Assembly (NCBI GenBank): GCA_025677815.1
Contig: JAIXMP010000005.1
Span: 1 to 64,000, forward strand
DNA length: 64,000 bases
Source of the DNA: Phascolomyces articulosus
Lineage: Eukaryota > Mucoromycota > Mucoromycetes > Mucorales > Lichtheimiaceae
Reading direction: 5' to 3'
Of the stretch, positions 15,023 through 52,865 are shown one piece after another (position 1 is the stretch's first letter; the number at the start of each line of letters is the position of its first letter). Made by a program: the position numbers and the translations under genes. The notes beneath the pieces were generated by a model, which ran no database searches, was not told where the DNA came from, and worked only from the letters and a program-made list of their open reading frames with translations.

Positions 15023-16083
15023 AATGGTGTCTTTTTTTTTTTTTTTGTTTTTCTAAAACAGATTAATTTAAATTAAATGTATATAAAATAATAATAATAA
15101 TAGTAATAAGAAATGGTATAAATCTATAGACACATGTACAAGAAGATAGGAAAAAAAAGAAGTATATAAAAAATATAGAAGAAAGAGGGAAAAAGTACCA
15201 TTTTTTTTCTTCATATGAAAATCATCGGTAAAACAATTGTCCCCATTCATTCTCGTGGAGGAATTTATATTTTACTTCTATTCTTGAAAACTATTACCTA
15301 ATGCATTATATAATTGTATATTTCTAATTGGTACTTGTTTATTAATCACTTATATCTATTCCTTATTACTACTTGTTTTTAAGCATTATGATCATAAATA
15401 TTAACAACAATTCTATTGTAAGTTTCATTTTATTTATCATCGAAATATACACACGCCTGGAGATTGATGATATAAATTTCAACTGTCATCTATCTTATGA
15501 ATGGTGTTACATTCAATAGTGCATGGGAACATATCATTTGTGTTTCCTAAAATACGACAGCATGAATTATAAATTGCTTTTAATATATTCTAGTTACAAC
15601 ATTCTCACCTAAACACTAATATCAATAAGAAGAATTATCTATTACTGCACGCATACATGAAAATGCATAGCTTCATTTCCATCTTTGTTTTTATTCAAAA
15701 AAGTATCAATAGATAACAACAATAGAAAAGAAATACTATTGTTATTTAAACTATAGTTGTTGTTGTTGGGTATAAAGGTTACCTTGTATATATTGAGGGA
15801 CTTGTATAAGGATGAGAATGAAGCCAAATAGACATTTTATTGTATTACGGATGAAAGATGATTTACAATTAGATAATTATCTGATAAATCGACCAAATGA
15901 AAACTTTAATTATAATGCTACTGGCAATACCTTCATATTGCAAGAATATTCTAGATGATTATGAAATAAAAAGAATCCTACAAATGTCACTTTGTACCTT
16001 ATCTCCTGTGTCATTATAATAATGTAATAGTAGTAACCCGAACAACTGATTGCTATCATTCGTTACTAATATAATGTACTATA
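15023..16083. other. Intergenic, no gene seen
   Basis: AT-rich spacer between the divergently oriented peroxin and carotenoid oxygenase genes. Small frames at 15068-15250 and 15642-15827 lack support. Confidence 0.5.
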
Positions 16084-16310
16084 GTTTCCTTTCCCAACAA
16101 GAATTACTTAAGTTTCATAGCCATGTAGGTATCAATTATTTCAATTTATAATGCTTAATACTCCAGGCTTAGCCAAGATAAAGTTTCTGCTTGGCACGAT
16201 ATATTTTTATGTAAAATTCCACAAAGCAGGAACAAAGCAACAAAAAAAAAATCTTTTGCATCAATCTCGATAAATAAATAAGGACCCTAACACTGACACA
16301 TTATTTCCAT

Positions 16311-16400
16311 TTATGGGGCCAACTGGCCGGTCAAAGTGAATCACGTTACGTATCCAATTTGGGTGGAAACTCCCCATATCACGTATAAATAATATAAATA
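16311..16400 (+). promoter_or_regulatory. Promoter of carotenoid oxygenase copy A
   Basis: TATAAAT at 16384-16390 lies about 75 bp before the ATG. Upstream, the block CAACTGGCCGGTCAAAGTGA followed by CACGTTACG and CCAATTTGGG is kept almost unchanged in copy B (47740-47790), whereas the sequence further upstream differs by indels. The near-palindromic TGGCCGGTCA core is a candidate factor-binding site. The function is inferred from conservation only. Confidence 0.5.
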
Positions 16401-16462
16401 TTTCACAGAAAAAAAAAAGTCAATTTACTAAAAACTTTCAGACCCTTCCACAACAACGAATA

Positions 16463-18395
16463 ATGGGTTTCTTTGAATATATCAATTTAAACAATCAAAT
16501 TCGTTCATTCCAAAGTCTCAACAAGTTCGGCAACACACCACAAGTGGCAGATCCAATTTGGTGTCCCATTGAAGGTTCTATTCCACCATGGGTCAATGGG
16601 ATTTTATATCGTACAGGTAAAAACACATATTTATAATCAATCCCATAGGAGGATGAAGTATATTGACGGATTCTACGATATTATTTAGGACCTGGAAAAT
16701 ATAATCTTGGAGACGATGAAAAACAATATGTAATTCAACACGCGTTTGACGGTCTACCTTTTGTCCATCGCTTTGAGCTTTCGGCTGAAAAGCAAGCTGT
16801 TCGTTATAACAACCGAATGATTGCAGAAGAGGTAGAAAGTAAACTCGTCAAGAACCCTAATTCAAATCAACTATTCTTTGGACATGTACCGAGTTGGTCC
16901 AATTGGCGTGGATTCATTAATATGCTTACTCGACTTGGTAGTATTGCGGTTGCTCCAAGCAAAAATGAAAGAGATCGTTCTAACAAGATGGTTGGCGTTA
17001 CAGTAACTCCTAATTTCCCATTACCCTCCAAATTCAGTCTTGCTCCTAATGATGATCATGTTTTGGTGACAAAGACTGATGCCAATATTTTACAACACGT
17101 CCATTCGACTACTTTGGGTAAGTCTATACTACGTACATGTATAAAATATCAAAAATAAAAATTATATATATTATACATGAGATTAACAAGAAAGAAAAAT
17201 GGGTTTATTTGCTTCTTGGATAAATATTATCTATATAGAACCTGAACGACTGTTTGATTATAGTGATTATGATGAAAACTTTGCTGGTGTACTTTCAGCA
17301 GCTCACCACCAAAGAGATCCAAACACAAACGAAACATTCAATTTTTCTATTAACTTTGGACGTGAAACATCCATGACCGTGTTTTCAATCGATGCTAAAG
17401 GAAACAATAAAGTATTGGCCAAAATCACTCAACGCCTTTTACCCAATGGTAAACAATCCAGCATCCTTCCTGCTTATATCCACTCGTTCTGGCTTACCGA
17501 AAATTATGTAATTATTCCTGAATCTCCTCTCCATTACGCAAATAACGGTCTGGATGTTCTGGTCCATGGTGTCATTTCCACTGCCATGGCATGGAAAGAA
17601 GACAGTCCAACGTATTTACATGTTATTAGTCGCGATCCAAGTGTCGGTCATGTTGTGTCTTTACCTGTGGATAATCCTTTCTTTACTTTTCATACTGGTA
17701 ATGCTTGGGATTATGTGGATAAAGATGGTAATCCAGTGTTGGAATTGGAATGTTGTGCAGTGGATAGCGGTGATATTTTATATCAAGTGGCTCGCTATGG
17801 TGGTATGGAACGTTACGAAGGAGAAAACAAACAGAAGCACCTTACGCCTATGAATCAAGGCAAACAACGTGGCATGACTATTCCACCATCGCCCACCACT
17901 GAGTTCGGTGATTTCCATCGTTACCGTGCCACATGGAATAAAAAAGCAAAAACAGGCCAAGTTTCTTATAATGTCATTGCCAAGAACGTTGAGTTCCCAC
18001 GGTTTGCGCCTCAATTGGCATGTCAAAAAACAAGATATGTTTGGGGATGTCAACATGAATCTGCTACAGCTAATAACAGTGAAAGATTCAGTTTGATCAA
18101 ACTGGATACAGAAACTGGTAAAATCACCAAAATCGATCAAGGATGCACCATGTTTTCGGAACCTGTGTTTGTACCCAATCCAGATAGCAAGACGGGTGAT
18201 GAAGATGATGGTGCTTTATTAAGTTTTGCCAATTTTATTGATCCTCGTGGTTCTCATCATGATCGTTGTATTCTTTCTGTTGTGGATGCTAAGACGATGA
18301 AGGAAATGGGTCGTTGTGATATTGGACAATTTGTTGCAACTACGTTCCATGGTTCGTTTGTGGATGTTGACTTTGTTAGTGTTTCTATCAGTTAA
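16463..18395 (+). CDS. Carotenoid cleavage dioxygenase, copy A
   Basis: Three exons, 16463-16616, 16689-17117 and 17239-18395, give 579 aa. The Met at 17199 is intronic; splicing to 17239 restores STTLEPERLFDY. Family signatures are all present: YRTGPGKY (residue 49 on), FDG...HRF, and four candidate iron-binding His in the usual contexts, H217 (SAAHHQRD), H276 (YIHSFWLTENY), H346 (FHTGNAWD) and H565 (TFHGSF). The RPE65/CCD family oxidatively cuts carotenoid or apocarotenoid double bonds with a non-haem Fe(II). In zygomycetes such enzymes start trisporoid pheromone synthesis from beta-carotene, but which bond this one cuts cannot be told from sequence. It is near-identical to copy B and is followed by a P450 remnant. 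Confidence 0.93.
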
Positions 18396-18842
18396 TAGCC
18401 ATTTTTATATATCCTATTTTTGCAACCCTTTTCTCCATAGTTTGTTATATTAATACCATAAATATATTTTATACCTTTACTTTGCAAGTTTCTATTTTTT
18501 CGATATAAATTTGGTGTATGGTGGTTGTCAGTTTACTACTTGTATTATTCTTTCAAAATTAATATCATCTTGGCCATGTTAGAAAAAGTGTAGATTCAAA
18601 TGAGATTTTATACCTTTTATTTTTTTTATTTTTTATTTTTTATTTTTTTGAAATGGCATGTCCGATTCTTTGACCTTGTTTAACAAGATTGGAATCATCC
18701 TAAATTAAAAATGTTCAGCCAGTCGTTTTGGCGGAGAAGACTCAGTTTTTACCAAAAGGAATAATGAGCTATGAAACTGTATTGTAAACTATATAATCAT
18801 ATTAGCCATTATTTTTTTAATATATACTACAATAGTAAATAG

Positions 18843-19145
18843 ACGTGCTTGACCAGGAATTTATATGGTAGGGTTATTATGGGACACTTTAATATAGAGT
18901 GCGATTAGGTTAATGATTTGTTGGCCTTTTTTTTTTACGCTATATTTTTATAGGTTTAAGTGGATATATACAATGTTTTGGTACTGTTATTGGCAAAGGC
19001 AGCTATTGATCCAATAATCGATAATGATGGAGATCCTGTACACGCAGGTATTGACAATGATGAGGATGATGATGCTGGTGTCGTTATTCTATCAAAAGAC
19101 AAAGTTCTTTGCATAGCTAAACGAACTGGTATTTTTACCGTATAA
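18843..19145 (+). pseudogene. Cytochrome P450 remnant (last two exons only)
   Basis: Homologous to the two final exons of the P450 at 50547-52865. The haem-binding exon (18843-18867) reads RRA-stop-PG, with the haem-ligand Cys codon TGT changed to TGA. The last exon (18954-19145) has GAG changed to TAA near its start, then encodes VDIYNVLVLLLAKAAIDP...GVVILSKDKVLCIAKRT. The rest of the gene has been deleted. Its position 450 bp after the oxygenase matches the gene order in copy B. Confidence 0.85.
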
Positions 19146-19270
19146 TCTAATAATGTAGATCAAGCAAATATTTAGATAAAATAAAAGATGGAATTCTATT
19201 TCAATAAGCCGATAATAACAAATATCACTACATTAACAGGTTGTAATAAAAAATAAACATCTAATAATCC

Positions 19271-44896: not shown

Positions 44897-47496
44897 TATT
44901 AGTAAAAATAAAAAAGAATAGGTAGTATATAATTTTTAATTGAAGATGCGATGGAAAGAGAAGGTATGTTTTTTCGTTTGTTTATTCTCGATTTAAATAG
45001 GCGGAATGAAAAAGACAAAGAAGGCAAAATGAAATGCTGCGGATAAAGCTTAAAATATTGAAAAAGAAAATGGTGATTTTATGGCTGTGTTGTTTTAGTT
45101 AAAATAATAAAAATTACAATAACATGAATGATCAGCAGGTTCCCGTAATTTCAATCCATAACACAATAGTCATTTAATTTTTAAAAGGATACTATTTACA
45201 TTTATGTAACAGTACCCTCCTAACCAGCATCATTTTCTATCATTTTCTTGCTATTAATTACATGGTTTCATTTAGTGGAGTCTGAAGTTTTGTTTGGAAG
45301 GCATCATGCACCACATTCAATGAGTCAGCATGACAAACTTACTCATAACAGTTTTATCGTTATTACGAAAAAATAGTGTTTTGCTATTGAAAATTATATG
45401 AGGCACCATATGCATATTTAAACCTTTGCGAAGGGCATTATAAAATTGAATTATAACGATACATATGGGATGCTCTCTCATGTTACATGGCGCTATATAT
45501 TGCTCAGTACTGCTGCGTGCAATGGTCAGATAACGGGGACAAAATGATAGTCTAGTAAATAGTCCGTTATTCCCCGGTTTTTACTTTGTTTAAATTACTA
45601 CCAGTAATAACATTGGTTCTTTTGAACTTATAGCCTACTGAACACAATATCCATAATTTTGGGTTAAGAAAAAAACACACCCGCACTCTGGTTATGCACA
45701 TTTTAGAGAGAGCTAATAAATAAACGTTATTGTTTGATCTAAAACCCTTTCGATTTTCAGATTATGTATTAGGGTATTTCTCAAGTAAAGCACTGATTTG
45801 TCAGCAACCCTTTGTCTAATTTATTAAAAAAACGGGGATCTAACAAATCGGCATCATGTCCCCAGCATATTGACTTTCTTAAAAAGAGTGTGGGTTTATT
45901 TACAGCCATGACTAGGAGAAGTATAATTTTATAAGGTAGATGTTTATAGTACTGTGGTTTATTTTAAGCCTATGTGATAGTAAAATATAACTAACTTCCT
46001 GGTCTAGCAGTGAAAGGTAAATGTACCTCTTAGCGAAGACAAATTTTGAACAACCACGATCAGGGAACATAATAAATACAATGACGAATCTTTGCTTAGG
46101 AAGATTGATCACTTGAGAGAAAAATATTCATGGTGCTTTTTATTATATGTACGGTAGACTATTCCCAAAATTAATCATGCTTGATCATAAAAAGGAACTG
46201 CTCGTTTAATGTTACGATTCTTAAGATTAAACGCTGCATTTCTACCAATAAGAGCAACTTTAATAGAAGAACCAATAATAAATAGTGATCGAAGATACAT
46301 TTATAAATAAAAATAAGAGATATTAGAGGAAATCTCTTGAAAATATCTGTAGAATTTTTATATTATTACGCGTTATAATCGCTATGTATAATGTTTTGAT
46401 AAAAAATTCTGAGAATGCCAGTGGTAGTTGTCTAGTTTCCCGCTATATATCTTTTTTTTTTTCAAGTGCATGTAATTAGATAATGATTATATTAGAAGGA
46501 TCAATGTATTTTTCGCTTATTTTGATATTCGTAACCTATATGAGATTTTATATAGCACGTCCAAATTTTTGTGACCCAACAGGTTTACACAGGAACATGC
46601 TTATTGGTGAATAGCAGTTTTCTCCATAGAAAAGGATGCAAAATTTTATACCCATAATAATATTGGATATCACACTATATTTGGTAAAATCTGCTCAGTA
46701 ATAATAAATACTTTCAAACAAATTATTGAAATCCCACTTGTTCACCTTTCAGTTATTGGGAAGAAGAGATAAAGCTTGTCGAATAATGATCACATGGTAT
46801 GATATATTGTACTTGTAACAGTGACTATGTAAGTAGTTTCTTATATAAAAGTATTCGCACCTGTTTATGATAGTCAATGTGATAATAGTATATTTGAATG
46901 TTTACTATTATAGTAAAAGGAAATCAGATAAAACGGTGTAGAGAATTATATCAAGAATATAAAGGACCTTAGAGAAATCTATTAAGAACCTCTCAACATC
47001 TTTATTTACCAGTAGAAAGAGCCAAGAAGAATAAAGGATATCATAAAAAGTTAAAAGAAGCTACGATTCTCAAAAAAAAAAAAAAAACCAGATATAGTAT
47101 TATACATCAACATTTTAATAATAATAATTTATAAGTAACGGACTGGTTGAAGACTTTTTAATAATAGAGAAGAATCTATTATATATTTTCACATTCAAAG
47201 ATGCATTTGATTAAACTACTGATTGGTAACACACTGTTATCACAGATTAAAGTTTATACTTTTATGCATGCAAACATTATTGGCAATAATCTAATCAAGG
47301 TATTTTTTATTTTATTATATTCGCTTACCTGTGCACTTACTATGCCGATATTCATTGGTGGAGGAAGTAACAATAGCTGAATTCAAAAACAATAACTTTG
47401 CACTAAGTTTAATACTACTAAATAGTGTATGATCAGTTACATTCCTTGGTTCGTTTTTTTTTACTAAAGGAATAAAGTATAAAACGTATTATTATT
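44897..47496. other. Long intergenic region, no gene seen
   Basis: AT-rich, with no supported coding frame (45912-46112 is AT-driven). The stretch 46920-47095 is Lys-rich in translation and could be old transposon debris, but nothing identifies it. Confidence 0.45.
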
Positions 47497-47730
47497 GTTT
47501 CCTTTCCTGACAAAAATTATTTGGTCTTATAGCCATATAGGTATCAATTATATCGATTAATAATACAATCATTTCAATTTATAATGCTTAATACTCCAGG
47601 CTTAGCCAAGAGAAAGTTCTGCTTGGCACGATATATTATGTAAAATTCCAAAAAGCAGCAAAAAAAAAAAATCTTTTGCATCAATATCGATAAACAAATA
47701 AGGACCCTAACACTGACACATCATTTCCAT

Positions 47731-47820
47731 TTATGGGATCAACTGGCCGGTCAAAGTGAACCACGTTACGTTTCCAATTTGGGCGGAAACTCCCCATATC
47801 ACGTATAAATAATATAAATA
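47731..47820 (+). promoter_or_regulatory. Promoter of carotenoid oxygenase copy B
   Basis: TATAAAT at 47804-47810, about 75 bp before the ATG, as in copy A. The CAACTGGCCGGTCAAAGTGA block is unchanged. Differences in the surrounding 90 bp are a few single bases (for example ACGTTTCC for ACGTATCC and GGGCGG for GGGTGG). Confidence 0.5.
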
Positions 47821-47882
47821 TTTCACAGAAAAAAAAAAGTCAATTTACTAAAAACTTTCAGACCCTTCCACAACAACGAATA

Positions 47883-49815
47883 ATGGGTTTCTTTGAATAT
47901 ATCAATTTAAACAATCGAATTCGTTCATTCCAAAGTCTCAACAAGTTCCGCAACACACCACAAGTGGCAGATCCAATTTGGTGTCCCATTGAAGGTTCTA
48001 TTCCACCATGGGTCAATGGGATTTTATATCGTACAGGTAAAAACACATATTTATAATCAATCCCATAGGAGGATGAAGTATATTGACGGATTCTACGATA
48101 TTATTTAGGACCTGGAAAATATAATCTTGGAGACGATGAAAAACAATACGTAATTCAACACGCGTTTGACGGTCTACCTTTTGTCCATCGCTTTGAGCTT
48201 TCGGCTGAAAAGCAAGCTGTTCGCTATAACAACCGAATGATTGCAGAAGATGTTGAAAGTAATCTCGTCAAGAACCCTAACTCAAATCAAATATTCTTTG
48301 GACATGTACCGACTTGGTCCAATTGGCGCGGATTCATTAATATGCTTGCTCGACTTGGTAGTATTGCGGTTGCTCCAAGCAAGAATGAAAGAGGTCGTTC
48401 TAATGAGATGGTTGGCGTTACAGTGACCCCTAATTTCCCACTACCCTCCAAATTCAGTCTTGCTCCTAATGATGATCATGTTTTGGTGACAAAGACTGAT
48501 GCCAATATTTTACAACACGTCCATTCGACTACTTTGGGTAAGTCTATACTACGTACATGTATAAAATATCAAAAATAAAAATTATATATATTATACATGA
48601 GATTAACAAGAAAGAAAAATGGGTTTATTTGCTTCTTGGATAAATATTATCTATATAGAACCTGAACGACTGTTTGATTATAGTGATTATGATGAAAACT
48701 TTGCTGGTGTACTTTCAGCAGCTCACCACCAAAGAGATCCAAACACAAACGAAACATTCAATTTTTCTATTAACTTTGGACGTGAAACATCCATGACCGT
48801 GTTTTCAATCGATGCTAAAGGAAACAATAAAGTATTGGCCAAAATCACTCAACGCCTTTTACCCAATGGTAAACAATCCAGCATCCTTCCTGCTTATATC
48901 CACTCGTTCTGGCTTACCGAAAATTATGTAATTATTCCTGAATCTCCTCTCCATTACGCAAATAACGGTCTGGATGTTCTGGTCCATGGTGTCATTTCCA
49001 CTGCCATGGCATGGAAAGAAGACAGTCCAACGTATTTACATGTTATTAGTCGCGATCCAAGTGTCGGTCATGTTGTGTCTTTACCTGTGGATAATCCTTT
49101 CTTTACTTTTCATACTGGTAATGCTTGGGATTATGTGGATAAAGATGGTAATCCAGTGTTGGAATTGGAATGTTGTGCAGTGGATAGCGGTGATATTTTA
49201 TATCAAGTGGCTCGCTATGGTGGTATGGAACGTTACGAAGGAGAAAACAAACAGAAGCACCTTACGCCTATGAATCAAGGCAAACAACGTGGCATGACTA
49301 TTCCACCATCGCCCACCACTGAGTTCGGTGATTTCCATCGTTACCGTGCCACATGGAATAAAAAAGCAAAAACAGGCCAAGTTTCTTATAATGTCATTGC
49401 CAAGAACGTTGAGTTCCCACGGTTTGCGCCTCAATTGGCATGTCAAAAAACAAGATATGTTTGGGGATGTCAACATGAATCTGCTACAGCTAATAACAGT
49501 GAAAGATTCAGTTTGATCAAACTGGATACAGAAACTGGTAAAATCACCAAAATCGATCAAGGATGCACCATGTTTTCGGAACCTGTGTTTGTACCCAATC
49601 CAGATAGCAAGACGGGTGATGAAGATGATGGTGCTTTATTAAGTTTTGCCAATTTTATTGATCCTCGTGGTTCTCATCATGATCGTTGTATTCTTTCTGT
49701 TGTGGATGCTAAGACGATGAAGGAAATGGGTCGTTGTGATATTGGACAATTTGTTGCAACTACGTTCCATGGTTCGTTTGTGGATGTTGACTTTGTTAGT
49801 GTTTCTATCAGTTAA
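47883..49815 (+). CDS. Carotenoid cleavage dioxygenase, copy B
   Basis: Exons 47883-48036, 48109-48537 and 48659-49815, 579 aa, with the same intron positions as copy A. All four iron-His contexts and the RTGPGKY motif are kept, so it should be active. Against copy A it carries nine amino-acid changes, all in the first 190 residues (for example Q12R and G23R), and none in exon 3. It sits 730 bp upstream of the P450 pseudogene, on the same strand. A role in apocarotenoid (trisporoid-type) synthesis is inferred from the family and likely organism; the substrate is unknown. Confidence 0.93.
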
Positions 49816-50546
49816 TAGCCATTTTTATATATCCTATTTTTGCAACCCTTTTCTCCATAGTTTGTTATATTAATACCATAAATATATTTTATACCTTTAC
49901 AAGTTTCTATTTTTTTCGATATTAATTTGGTGTATGGTGGTTGTCAGTTTACTACTTGTATTATTCTTTCAAAATTAATATCATCTTGGCCATGTTAGAA
50001 AAAGTGTAGATTCAAATGAGATTTTATACTTTTTTTTTTTTTTTTCGAAATGGCATGTCCGATTCTTTGACCTTATTGAACAAGATTGGAGTTTTTTTTT
50101 TTTTTTTGGATGAAACAAATAAAAAAAACTAGTTATTATTTGTTGGGCATGTGACATGTATTCAAACATCACAGTTCGACTCTTTCACGAGAGGCGCGAG
50201 TTTCCAAAAAAGGGGGGAAAGCATCAGATGCATTTGAGGAGTAAAAGGGTTCATTCTACGCTGCTGATATTTTTTTATTAGTATCAACACCGGGATATAG
50301 TTCAAGGATGCAAAAGATGTATAGTTATTGATTATCCTTGCCGTTACCTTCACTGATTCTTTTGCTGGTTTGTTTTTAATGTTGTTTATCCATCAATTAC
50401 CAATAAAAGTGATTTCATTTTCAAACACGTGCAGGAGCCTATTCCTGATTTGGATTGGATAAAAATCTTAGAAATGCACATTTAGAATTAATGAGGGTTA
50501 GCCCGTCTTCTTTTTCTTTATTTTTCCTTTTTTTTTTTTCGTATCA
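49816..50546. other. Spacer between oxygenase copy B and the P450
   Basis: The first 85 bp match the 3' flank of copy A exactly. The sequence then diverges by small indels up to about 50090. The rest is unique to copy B and contains the P450 leader (CT-rich at 50500-50540). No gene. Confidence 0.5.
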
Positions 50547-52865
50547 ATGTCAAGCAATATTGACCAACCTGTTATTATCCGTTTTTTCCTTACTACTGAC
50601 GGATTAGTAGCAGCGCATTATTATTATTATTATTACTATGGTACACATTATTCGTCGTTGGTGTCATCCACGCAAAAGTTAAAAAAAATCCCCATCCCAA
50701 AAGGACGAATTCCATATTTAGGTACTTGTATAAATATTTATTGAACGTTTTATATATGAATGATTGAATTTCCAGTGCTAATACATAAAAAATATATTCA
50801 GGTCATTTATTCGTCTTAACAAATTCACCATCAAACCAATTAGCGCAGTGGCAAAAGGAATTAGGTAAAGGAAGAAGAAAGCATTTTATAGAAAAAGAGG
50901 TTTCAAGTAGAAAAACAAAATAATGGTATCAAAAAAAAAGTCCAATCATGTGTGTTTCTATGGGAATCAAGCCATGGATCTTTCTAGCAGACCCAGACCT
51001 GGCGCATGACATACTTTCTAGAAACAGTGGAGTTACGTCAAATCATCCATTCCAAACATATACGCATCATTATTATTCAAAGAATAAGGGAATCGTATTT
51101 AATAATCCTTCCCCCGAGTGAAATAAAACAAGGGCCGCAGGTAATAATAGCATCTATCATCCTTTCTTTTCTTTGATTATGTATAAGAACAGAAGAAACA
51201 TCCAAGCAGCTATTTTTTTTTTACTTATAATCTGATTTTGTTTTCTTGATGCATTGTTATAAATGTAATTATCTCTATATAATGGACAGTTTTTCAATTT
51301 ATTTCACCAAAAATAGTTTCTGGATTAAACCATATTCTTGAACCTGAAGCTGATATTTTGGTACAAAATTTATTGGATGCATCATCATCAACTGACAAAG
51401 GTCAACAGCAGCAGGTCGATATTCTTAAGCCACTACAGCTTGCTGCAATGAATATTATCTTGAATATTGGATTTAGAAAACGCGCAGTATCTGTGGATGA
51501 TCCATTGTTTCAGTCCGTATTGAGTAATTTAGAAAAAGCAGTCGGGCACGCAAATATGGTACGTGACATGAGAACGTTTTTACCAGCTTTTTCGATTTTG
51601 ATTACTTTTTTCGACCAGGAATGAAAAGCTTTATTGAAGAGGAAACAAACCCATTATATCGTCAACTAGTCAAAGAAGCTCTCGAAAGTAACTCGGATTG
51701 TCTTGTAAAAAAATTAAGCCAGTTAGATCATATGGATGAAAAGCCATTATGGTTACAATGAGTAAGATATAATATATGTAACGTTTATTTTTTTTTCATC
51801 ATGAAACTGTAATACATATTACATATAGTTAGAAACTAACATTATCTTATGGGGAATAATATTATGTGTTATACATAAAAAATAGATGATGTGATTGCAG
51901 GTGGAAGTGGTACTACTGCAATTACAGCTGCATGGGCTTTGGTTATCTTATGTCGCTACCAGGATACACAGAGGGCAATTCGAAATGAAGTGGATCAATT
52001 TATTGCAACACAAGGCCGATTGCCTACATTTGCCGACAGACTATCTACCTTTGTTAATTTCTGTACAAAAGGAATGCATGCGATTTCGAGTAACAAGTTC
52101 TTTTGGTTTGCTTCACGAAACAACAAAAGATGGTAAAGTAGAAATTATTTAAATAAAACCGTGGATTTTTGAATCTTTTTTGTTGACACATTCATTTTTT
52201 CTTATGTAAATGGAAATGAAACAATTTTCTAATTATTAATTCCTTTTTTTTTTTTTTTTTGGTTCAACTATCATAGTGACTTGTCGTGGATATTTTATAC
52301 CCAAGGGTACTACAATATGCTAGCAATATGCTAGCTATTCATATGAATCCAGACGTGTATGATAACCCTGAAAAATTTATTCCTGATCGTTTTATGAATC
52401 GTTTAAAGCCCATGGCAGCATGTGCTCATGCAAATATTTCAGAGCGGGATCATTTTGTATTTGGATGGGGCCGGTAAATAATATATTGAGAATCCAAAGA
52501 TTGTATTATAAACACTATAATCGTATTAACCACTATTATATATATATATATACCACAACAATAAATAGACGTGCTTGTCCAGGAATACATATGGTAGGAT
52601 TATTATGGGACACTTTTATATAGAGTGGAGTTAGGTTAATGACATTGCTGAACTTTTTTTTTACGCATTTTGTTTATAGGCTGAGGTGGAAATATACAAT
52701 ATCTTGGTGCGGTTGTTGGCAAAGGCAACTATTAATCCAATAACTGATAGCAATGGAAATCCCGTATACCCAGATATTGACAATATAGATGATGCTGGTG
52801 TCGTTATTCTACCAAAAGACAGAATTCTTTGTATAACTAAACGAACTGATATTTCTACCGTATAA
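50547..52865 (+). pseudogene. Cytochrome P450, full length but disrupted
   Basis: P450 landmarks appear in order: an N-terminal anchor region with a poly-Tyr run, the Pro-rich hinge (KKIPIPKGRIPYLG), the B-C region (KPWIFLADPDLAHDILS), an I-helix AGGSGTT motif (the acidic residue replaced by Gly), PERF-like FIPDRF and the haem loop FGWGRRACPGIHM rebuilt by splicing 52473 to 52569, with the last exon at 52680-52865. Lesions include a TGA for Trp at 51119-51121, a frameshift near 51594, a stop near 51759, a frame change near 52055, an 11-bp tandem duplication at 52314-52335 and a frame loss at the third exon. It should not make enzyme. By position it was the oxygenase's partner, perhaps hydroxylating an apocarotenoid. 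Confidence 0.85.

What the first reader, a model, noticed from the sequence alone, without database searches (positions are those of the whole stretch)
16498..18480. Gene-conversion footprint between two carotenoid oxygenase genes 31 kb apart
Seen: copies A and B differ at 19 single positions between 16498 and 17021 (exons 1-2), then I find no difference from 17022 to 18480 (48442-49900 in copy B), about 1.46 kb that includes intron 2 and 85 bp of 3' UTR. Divergence with indels resumes right after 18480 and is also clear upstream of the gene. A sharp identity block including non-coding DNA, inside older divergent flanks, is the classic mark of recent conversion. Of the 19 differences, nine change amino acids, so the N-terminal part may be diverging while the catalytic exon is homogenised.
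Basis: seen in the sequence. Interest (0 to 1): 0.75.

Follow-up and report, generated by a model that had tools for sequence, protein, structure and literature searches.

The report
Recent copying between twin carotenoid-cleaving genes
Two copies of a predicted carotenoid-cutting enzyme gene, 31 kb apart in the mould Phascolomyces articulosus, are identical over 1,458 bases although the matching DNA further out on either side differs by 11-18 percent, so one copy has likely overwritten part of the other recently; this is a known process, and here it probably spared a short island in the second exon.

Summary
Copies A (16463-18395) and B (47883-49815) have 19 coding differences (9 amino-acid, 10 silent), then none over 17022-18479 (1458 bp, including intron 2 and 84 bp after the stop codon). 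Random placement of the 36 aligned differences never gave so long a run in 20,000 permutations. The organism is Phascolomyces articulosus (Mucorales). At that rate the tract should hold about 85 silent or non-coding differences and holds none, so ectopic gene conversion is well supported.

The stretch before the start codon, exon 1 and intron 1 (16365-16728) are also homogenised (0 of about 202 silent sites). The differences sit in a 293-bp island (16729-17021) whose silent divergence (13.8%) fits the old duplication and whose pN/pS (0.20) indicates purifying selection. It is probably unconverted residue. An assembly artefact could not be tested on reads. Verdict: a real but ordinary example of a known process.

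The parts
16463..18395 (+). Carotenoid oxygenase gene copy A; exons 16463-16616, 16689-17117, 17239-18395; predicted protein 579 aa
   Evidence: Spliced open reading frame; PF03055 hits in the search of the own genome
47883..49815 (+). Carotenoid oxygenase gene copy B; exons 47883-48036, 48109-48537, 48659-49815; predicted protein 579 aa
   Evidence: Spliced open reading frame; identical to the named record P0001; Pfam RPE65 E = 1.3e-88
17022..18479 (+). Recent conversion tract, copy A side: 1458 bp with no difference (end of exon 2, intron 2, exon 3, 84 bp after the stop codon)
48442..49899 (+). Recent conversion tract, copy B side
16729..17021 (+). Divergence island in exon 2, copy A: 17 differences in 293 bp
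   Evidence: silent divergence 13.8%, counted over 16689-17023
48149..48441 (+). Divergence island in exon 2, copy B
16365..16728 (+). Second homogenised stretch, copy A (98 bp before the start codon, exon 1, intron 1, start of exon 2): 2 differences in 364 bp, both amino-acid changing; 0 of about 202 silent or non-coding sites
47785..48148 (+). Second homogenised stretch, copy B
18480..18613 (+). Near-identical 3' extension, copy A: 1 substitution in 129 aligned sites plus two small indels; probably an older homogenised layer
18778..19152 (+). 3' remnant of a cytochrome P450 beside copy A; the codon at the place of the heme cysteine (motif recalled) reads TGA; old divergent flank used as yardstick
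   Evidence: 66 of 369 sites differ from the copy B side; frames; its last-exon peptide matches P450 exons on contig C30; that peptide alone has no Pfam match
50804..52862 (+). Frame-broken cytochrome P450 beside copy B (probable pseudogene)
   Evidence: PF00067 matches in 4 of 8 pieces from the B side, two of them above the curated cut-off; open frames change twice where the relative on C30 reads on in one frame
16077..16139 (+). Old divergent left flank, copy A
   Evidence: 10 of 62 sites differ from 47490-47551
47490..47551 (+). Old divergent left flank, copy B

Best explanation
The 1458-bp identical block is likely the footprint of a recent non-crossover ectopic gene conversion between two directly repeated carotenoid oxygenase genes 31.4 kb apart, in an older duplication whose homologous flanks differ by 11-18%. 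Shown: the block, its sharp left end, the divergent flanks, and the larger duplicated unit (oxygenase plus P450). Inferred: a double-strand break in one copy was repaired from the other by synthesis-dependent strand annealing without crossover, since a crossover between direct repeats would have deleted or duplicated the 31 kb between them. Inferred: at least one further, probably older, conversion or a patchily repaired part of the same event homogenised 16365-16728, leaving exon 2 positions 16729-17021 as residue of the original divergence. The direction of copying cannot be told.
For: Zero differences in 1458 bp. The run of 1480 substitution-free sites exceeds all 20,000 permutations. Of about 474 silent or non-coding sites in the block none differ, where the P450-relic rate of 17.9% predicts 85 (P = 2.5e-41). 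Silent coding sites: 0 of 268.7 in the block against 10 of 72.7 in exon 2 up to 17023 (Fisher P = 1.2e-7 on rounded counts). Silent sites in the block are free to change: against the C58 paralogue 62 of 106 comparable fourfold sites differ. The island's silent divergence matches the relic (Fisher P = 0.50). The 5' stretch has 0 of about 202 silent or non-coding differences where 36 are expected. No third close copy was found in the assembly as a donor: the other two DNA matches are 66% over about 1.18 kb (C58) and 75% over about 120 bases (C23). The right-hand homology ends at a P450 deletion in A just beyond the near-identical zone.
Against: No raw reads, second strain or close outgroup DNA was available, so an assembly error is not excluded and the event cannot be polarised. 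BIC prefers three segments (16138-17021, 17022-18613, 18614-18693; BIC 351.6) over finer mosaics (355.4 and higher), so the separate 5' homogenised stretch and the island rest on the silent-site yardstick and on clustering tests of modest strength, chosen after looking (P = 0.017 and 0.012). The yardstick assumes that the P450 relics evolved at about the silent rate of the oxygenase; a second small piece of the right flank differs less (5 of 47 sites).
Confidence: 0.88

Rival explanations
1. Assembly or polishing artefact: one consensus was used for both copies over the block.
For: Reads were not available, and the block is short enough to be mis-corrected.
Against: Both copies lie on one 1.73-Mb contig with distinct flanks, and the window holds no N. 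If the block were truly 14-18% diverged, reads would usually carry several differences and be told apart, so polishing alone should not flatten it; a true collapse would be needed (argument, not tested). The island and flank differences of the same gene were kept apart.
Confidence: 0.07
2. Selection for divergence guards the exon-2 island while conversion homogenises the rest, as in the primate red and green opsins: the two enzymes would share a catalytic barrel but differ in a helical region. This is an addition to the conversion account, not an alternative to it.
For: The island codes for residues 65-163, including predicted helices 98-106 and 123-138; residues 89-163 are the part that diverges most between species among the five segments compared (45-56% identity to the three nearest orthologues, against 69-75% in 195-579). 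A local peak of divergence is the published signature (PMC3924837, passages).
Against: pN/pS is 0.20, silent changes outnumber amino-acid changes (10 to 7), and the silent level is just what unconverted sequence predicts. One genome cannot show persistence.
Confidence: 0.12
3. Extreme purifying selection on the DNA of the block, with no conversion.
For: The block holds most of the predicted catalytic domain, with the invariant histidines H217/H218, H276, H346 and H565.
Against: Intron 2, the stretch after the stop codon and the silent sites are identical, yet silent sites there differ freely from the C58 paralogue (62 of 106).
Confidence: 0.01
4. The island was imported into one copy from a third gene or another lineage, in an otherwise young duplication.
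For: Clustered differences can arise by import; 11 of 14 A/T versus G/C differences in the island have G/C in copy B (P = 0.057).
Against: No third close copy was found in the assembly; the flanking P450 relic shows that the duplication is old, so no import is needed.
Confidence: 0.04

Closest known systems
Primate red and green opsin genes under gene conversion (PMC3924837, passages read)
   Same: Duplicates about 24 kb apart, homogenised by conversion, with a local peak of divergence in one exon.
   Different: In opsins the peak holds known function-changing residues; here no functional difference is known, and the peak looks like unconverted residue.
GOT1p1/GOT1p2 of the copepod Tigriopus californicus (PMC3728101, abstract and one results section read)
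   Same: Mosaic of low-divergence and high-divergence regions within one pair of enzyme genes, low Ka/Ks.
   Different: There four populations and GENECONV show repeated events; here a single genome, and GENECONV itself was not run.
CarS/Tsp3 and AcaA carotenoid oxygenases of Mucorales, in trisporic acid biosynthesis (PMC5133782 and PMC5238444, passages read)
   Same: Same enzyme family and order of fungi; Tsp3 is reported as single copy in the Mucorales genomes compared in PMC5238444, except two copies in Rhizopus microsporus.
   Different: Whether A and B belong to the CarS, the AcaA or another subfamily was not settled; no activity is known.

Membership tests
Ectopic (interlocus) gene conversion | Paralogues with homologous but clearly diverged flanks | tested here: met
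   Left flank 10 of 62, right flank 66 of 369 and 5 of 47 sites differ
Ectopic (interlocus) gene conversion | Sharply bounded identical tract that includes silent and non-coding sites, longer than chance | tested here: met
   1458 bp, permutation P = 5e-5; 0 of about 474 silent or non-coding sites. The right end is less sharp than the left: 1 substitution in the next 129 aligned sites
Ectopic (interlocus) gene conversion | Tract differs between strains or species, or shares derived variants within a genome | not testable with these tools
   No DNA of another strain or close species was at hand; only proteins of other species
Ectopic (interlocus) gene conversion | Not an assembly collapse | not testable with these tools
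   No reads; only indirect arguments
Carotenoid cleavage oxygenase (PF03055) | Family profile, iron-ligand histidines (ligand role recalled) and fold | tested here: met
   E = 1.3e-88; H217/H218, H276, H346, H565 invariant in 39 aligned sequences; model of copy B, pLDDT 91.5, matches NinaB, RPE65 and ACO structures
CarS/Tsp3 or AcaA subfamily | Orthology to characterised Phycomyces or Blakeslea enzymes | tested here: inconclusive
   Phycomyces homologues were listed (P0075-P0077) but none is labelled CarS or AcaA; no tree was built
Selection-guarded divergence peak (opsin type) | Local peak of divergence flanked by homogenised sequence | tested here: met
   17 of 19 coding differences in 293 bp; scan P = 0.017, longest-run P = 0.012 within 16138-17021; BIC does not favour the finer split
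Selection-guarded divergence peak (opsin type) | Excess of amino-acid change in the peak | tested here: not met
   pN 0.027 against pS 0.138
Selection-guarded divergence peak (opsin type) | Peak persists across strains or species | not testable with these tools
   One genome only

The most novel reading that the evidence does not exclude
Conversion keeps the catalytic barrel of two fungal carotenoid oxygenases identical while selection protects a 293-bp island coding for a fast-evolving helical region, so that one genome holds two enzymes with the same engine and different substrate entrances, possibly making different apocarotenoid signals.
Probability: 0.1. Interest if true: 0.55.

Novelty: new member of a known kind. 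Interest (0 to 1): 0.27.

Why it matters
It is a clean, internally calibrated case of gene conversion between paralogues in Mucorales: a dead P450 duplicated with the gene serves as a clock, so the event falls in about the last 3-4% of the duplication's age (95% bound from silent sites under a steady rate). It warns that whole-gene identity would date this duplication far too young. If the pair acts in apocarotenoid (sex-hormone) synthesis, which is untested, the nine residues named here are the only ones in which the two predicted enzymes differ.

Tried and rejected
DNA-level constraint was rejected by the silent-site comparison with the C58 paralogue. Import of the island from a third paralogue was rejected for want of a donor. 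A subtelomeric cause was looked for because the window starts at a contig end: no TTAGGG array at up to one mismatch, and the end reads to the eye as a retroelement-like coding stretch (no family search was made). A P450 next to other oxygenase paralogues was looked for in C58:98000-117000 and C23:281000-287500 (loci L005, L006, L031, L032): only two matches of 8 and 7 residues at E 0.20 and 0.53 came up there; the other paralogues (C89, C2, C67) were not looked at, so the oxygenase-P450 pairing is seen only at this locus so far. Polarising the nine amino-acid changes with 11 of the 73 other proteins: at site 12 the three nearest orthologues have R, at site 23 two of three have R and one P, so copy A (Q, G) looks derived there; most of the other sites gave no clear answer. 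GC bias in the island (11 to 3) was not significant (P = 0.057) and absent in the relic flank (26 to 23). Assignment to CarS or AcaA was tried by a second homologue search and left open. Novelty searches: gene conversion with Mucorales (12 papers), with carotenoid cleavage (3), with paralogs, fungi and GENECONV (19, of which 15 listed), and interlocus gene conversion with fungal genomes (1) listed no title or abstract start that reports this. The name Phascolomyces articulosus is in no paper of the library; Phascolomyces is in 6, none on its genome by title. Only listings were seen there.

Full report
What is there. The window lies at the start of a 1.73-Mb contig (C56) of a 47.4-Mb genome in 110 contigs. 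A protein search matched copy B at 100% over its full length to a record named carotenoid oxygenase of Phascolomyces articulosus on a contig of the same length, and the record stands for two member sequences; this fungus is placed in Mucorales, Lichtheimiaceae. Both copies are three-exon genes on the + strand with open frames for 579 residues, 31,420 bases apart. Copy B's Pfam family is PF03055, the histidines expected of the family are invariant in an alignment of 39 sequences (their role as iron ligands is recalled), and an AlphaFold2 model of copy B (pLDDT 91.5) matches solved structures of NinaB, RPE65 and ACO.

Alignment gives 19 coding differences, nine of them amino-acid changing, from 16497 to 17021, then none from 17022 to 18479. 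The longest substitution-free run is 1480 aligned sites; 20,000 random placements of the 36 differences in the 2519 aligned sites gave at most 970. The three A/T homopolymers of six or more bases between 16365 and 18479, the longest being ten A at 16409, are identical in both copies.

The duplicated unit is larger than one gene. Downstream of copy B lies a cytochrome P450: four of eight pieces from its open frames match PF00067, two of them above the curated cut-off and two below (protein 9 of that call was copy A's remnant, without a match, and protein 10 the oxygenase). Its open frame changes at two places where a related P450 on contig C30 reads on in one frame; a sequencing error or a tiny intron at either place is not excluded. 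Beside copy A only the 3' end of this P450 remains, at 18778-19152, and the codon at the place of the heme cysteine (motif recalled) reads TGA. The two relics differ at 66 of 369 sites (a BLAST alignment of the same stretch counted 50 mismatches in 380 columns). A further short piece on the right differs at 5 of 47 sites and the left flank at 10 of 62. The original duplication therefore carried an oxygenase and a P450 and is old by this yardstick.

The yardstick shows what was homogenised. At the relic rate the block should carry about 85 differences at its roughly 474 silent or non-coding sites and carries none. Such sites are not frozen: 62 of 106 comparable fourfold sites in this part differ from the C58 paralogue. 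The stretch 16365-16728 (98 bp before the start codon, exon 1, intron 1 and the start of exon 2) should carry about 36 differences at about 202 silent or non-coding sites and carries none; its two differences both change amino acids, and in both copy A departs from the nearest orthologues. The stretch 18480-18613 has 1 substitution in 129 sites where 23 are expected. Only exon 2 up to 17021 looks unconverted: its silent divergence, 10 of 72.7 sites (counted over 16689-17023), does not differ from the relic (Fisher P = 0.50). The upstream stretch 16138-16364 is intermediate (11 of 214), from an older conversion or promoter constraint; the short stretch 18614-18693 (5 of 61) is not clearly below the relic rate.

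How strong is the mosaic. A change-point fit by BIC prefers three segments, with breaks at 17021/17022 and 18613/18614; splitting 16138-17021 further is not favoured. Within 16138-17021 the differences are clustered by two permutation statistics (P = 0.017 and 0.012), chosen after looking. The island as unconverted residue is thus likely, not certain.

No sign of adaptive divergence. In exon 2 up to 17023 pN is 0.027 and pS 0.138 (Fisher P = 8e-4), so the copies have been under purifying selection. Residues 89-163, the larger part of the island, are the least conserved of five segments between species too: 45-56% identity to the three nearest orthologues, against 69-75% in residues 195-579. 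They contain two predicted helices, 98-106 and 123-138; that such helices border the substrate entrance in related enzymes is recalled, not tested.

Mechanism. A crossover between direct repeats would remove or double the 31 kb between the copies, which the self-comparison shows once in the window; conversion without crossover, most simply synthesis-dependent strand annealing after a break in one copy, fits best (inferred). The 95% upper bound on silent divergence in the block, 0.63%, places the event in the last 3-4% of the duplication's age under a steady rate. Direction cannot be told because the block is identical and no close outgroup DNA was at hand.

Age of the duplication. Even in residues 89-163, A and B agree at 68 of 75 places while the nearest orthologues agree at 45-56%, so the duplication looks younger than the split from Circinella, Zychaea and Fennellomyces, and this does not rest on the converted part.

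What is known. Local divergence peaks within converted duplicates are described for opsins (PMC3924837, passages) and for GOT1 in a copepod (PMC3728101, abstract and one section). Carotenoid oxygenases of Mucorales act in trisporic acid synthesis as CarS/Tsp3 and AcaA (PMC5133782 and PMC5238444, passages). The subfamily of A and B was not settled. This is a new example of a known process. The main gap is the lack of reads and of a second strain.

Noticed in passing
18778-19152 and 50804-52862: A cytochrome P450 was duplicated with the oxygenase; it is frame-broken beside copy B and only a 3' remnant beside copy A. Its closest relative in the genome search is on contig C30 (61% in a 92-residue piece).
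   Followed up: yes
L005 (C58 paralogue): The C58 oxygenase has an extra intron at the codons matching V157/T158 of copies A and B, some 14 bp before the start of the identical block; A and B lack it.
   Followed up: no
16729-17021: Of 14 island differences that exchange A/T for G/C, 11 have G/C in copy B (P = 0.057); the relic flank shows no such skew (26 to 23).
   Followed up: partly
search listings: Relatives come in pairs with the same longest-contig length in Mucor mucedo, Benjaminiella poitrasii, Cokeromyces recurvatus and Phycomyces nitens, which suggests linked duplicates in this family more than once.
   Followed up: no
1-1600: The contig end reads, on the - strand, like a retroelement gag stretch to the eye (an open frame at 953-1498); no telomere repeat was found.
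   Followed up: partly
G000 contigs C56, C58, C89, C23, C2, C67: The genome holds seven carotenoid oxygenase loci by PF03055 (15 exon matches). The C58 and C23 proteins are 55% and 45% identical to copy B; the C89, C2 and C67 genes gave no DNA match to copy A.
   Followed up: partly
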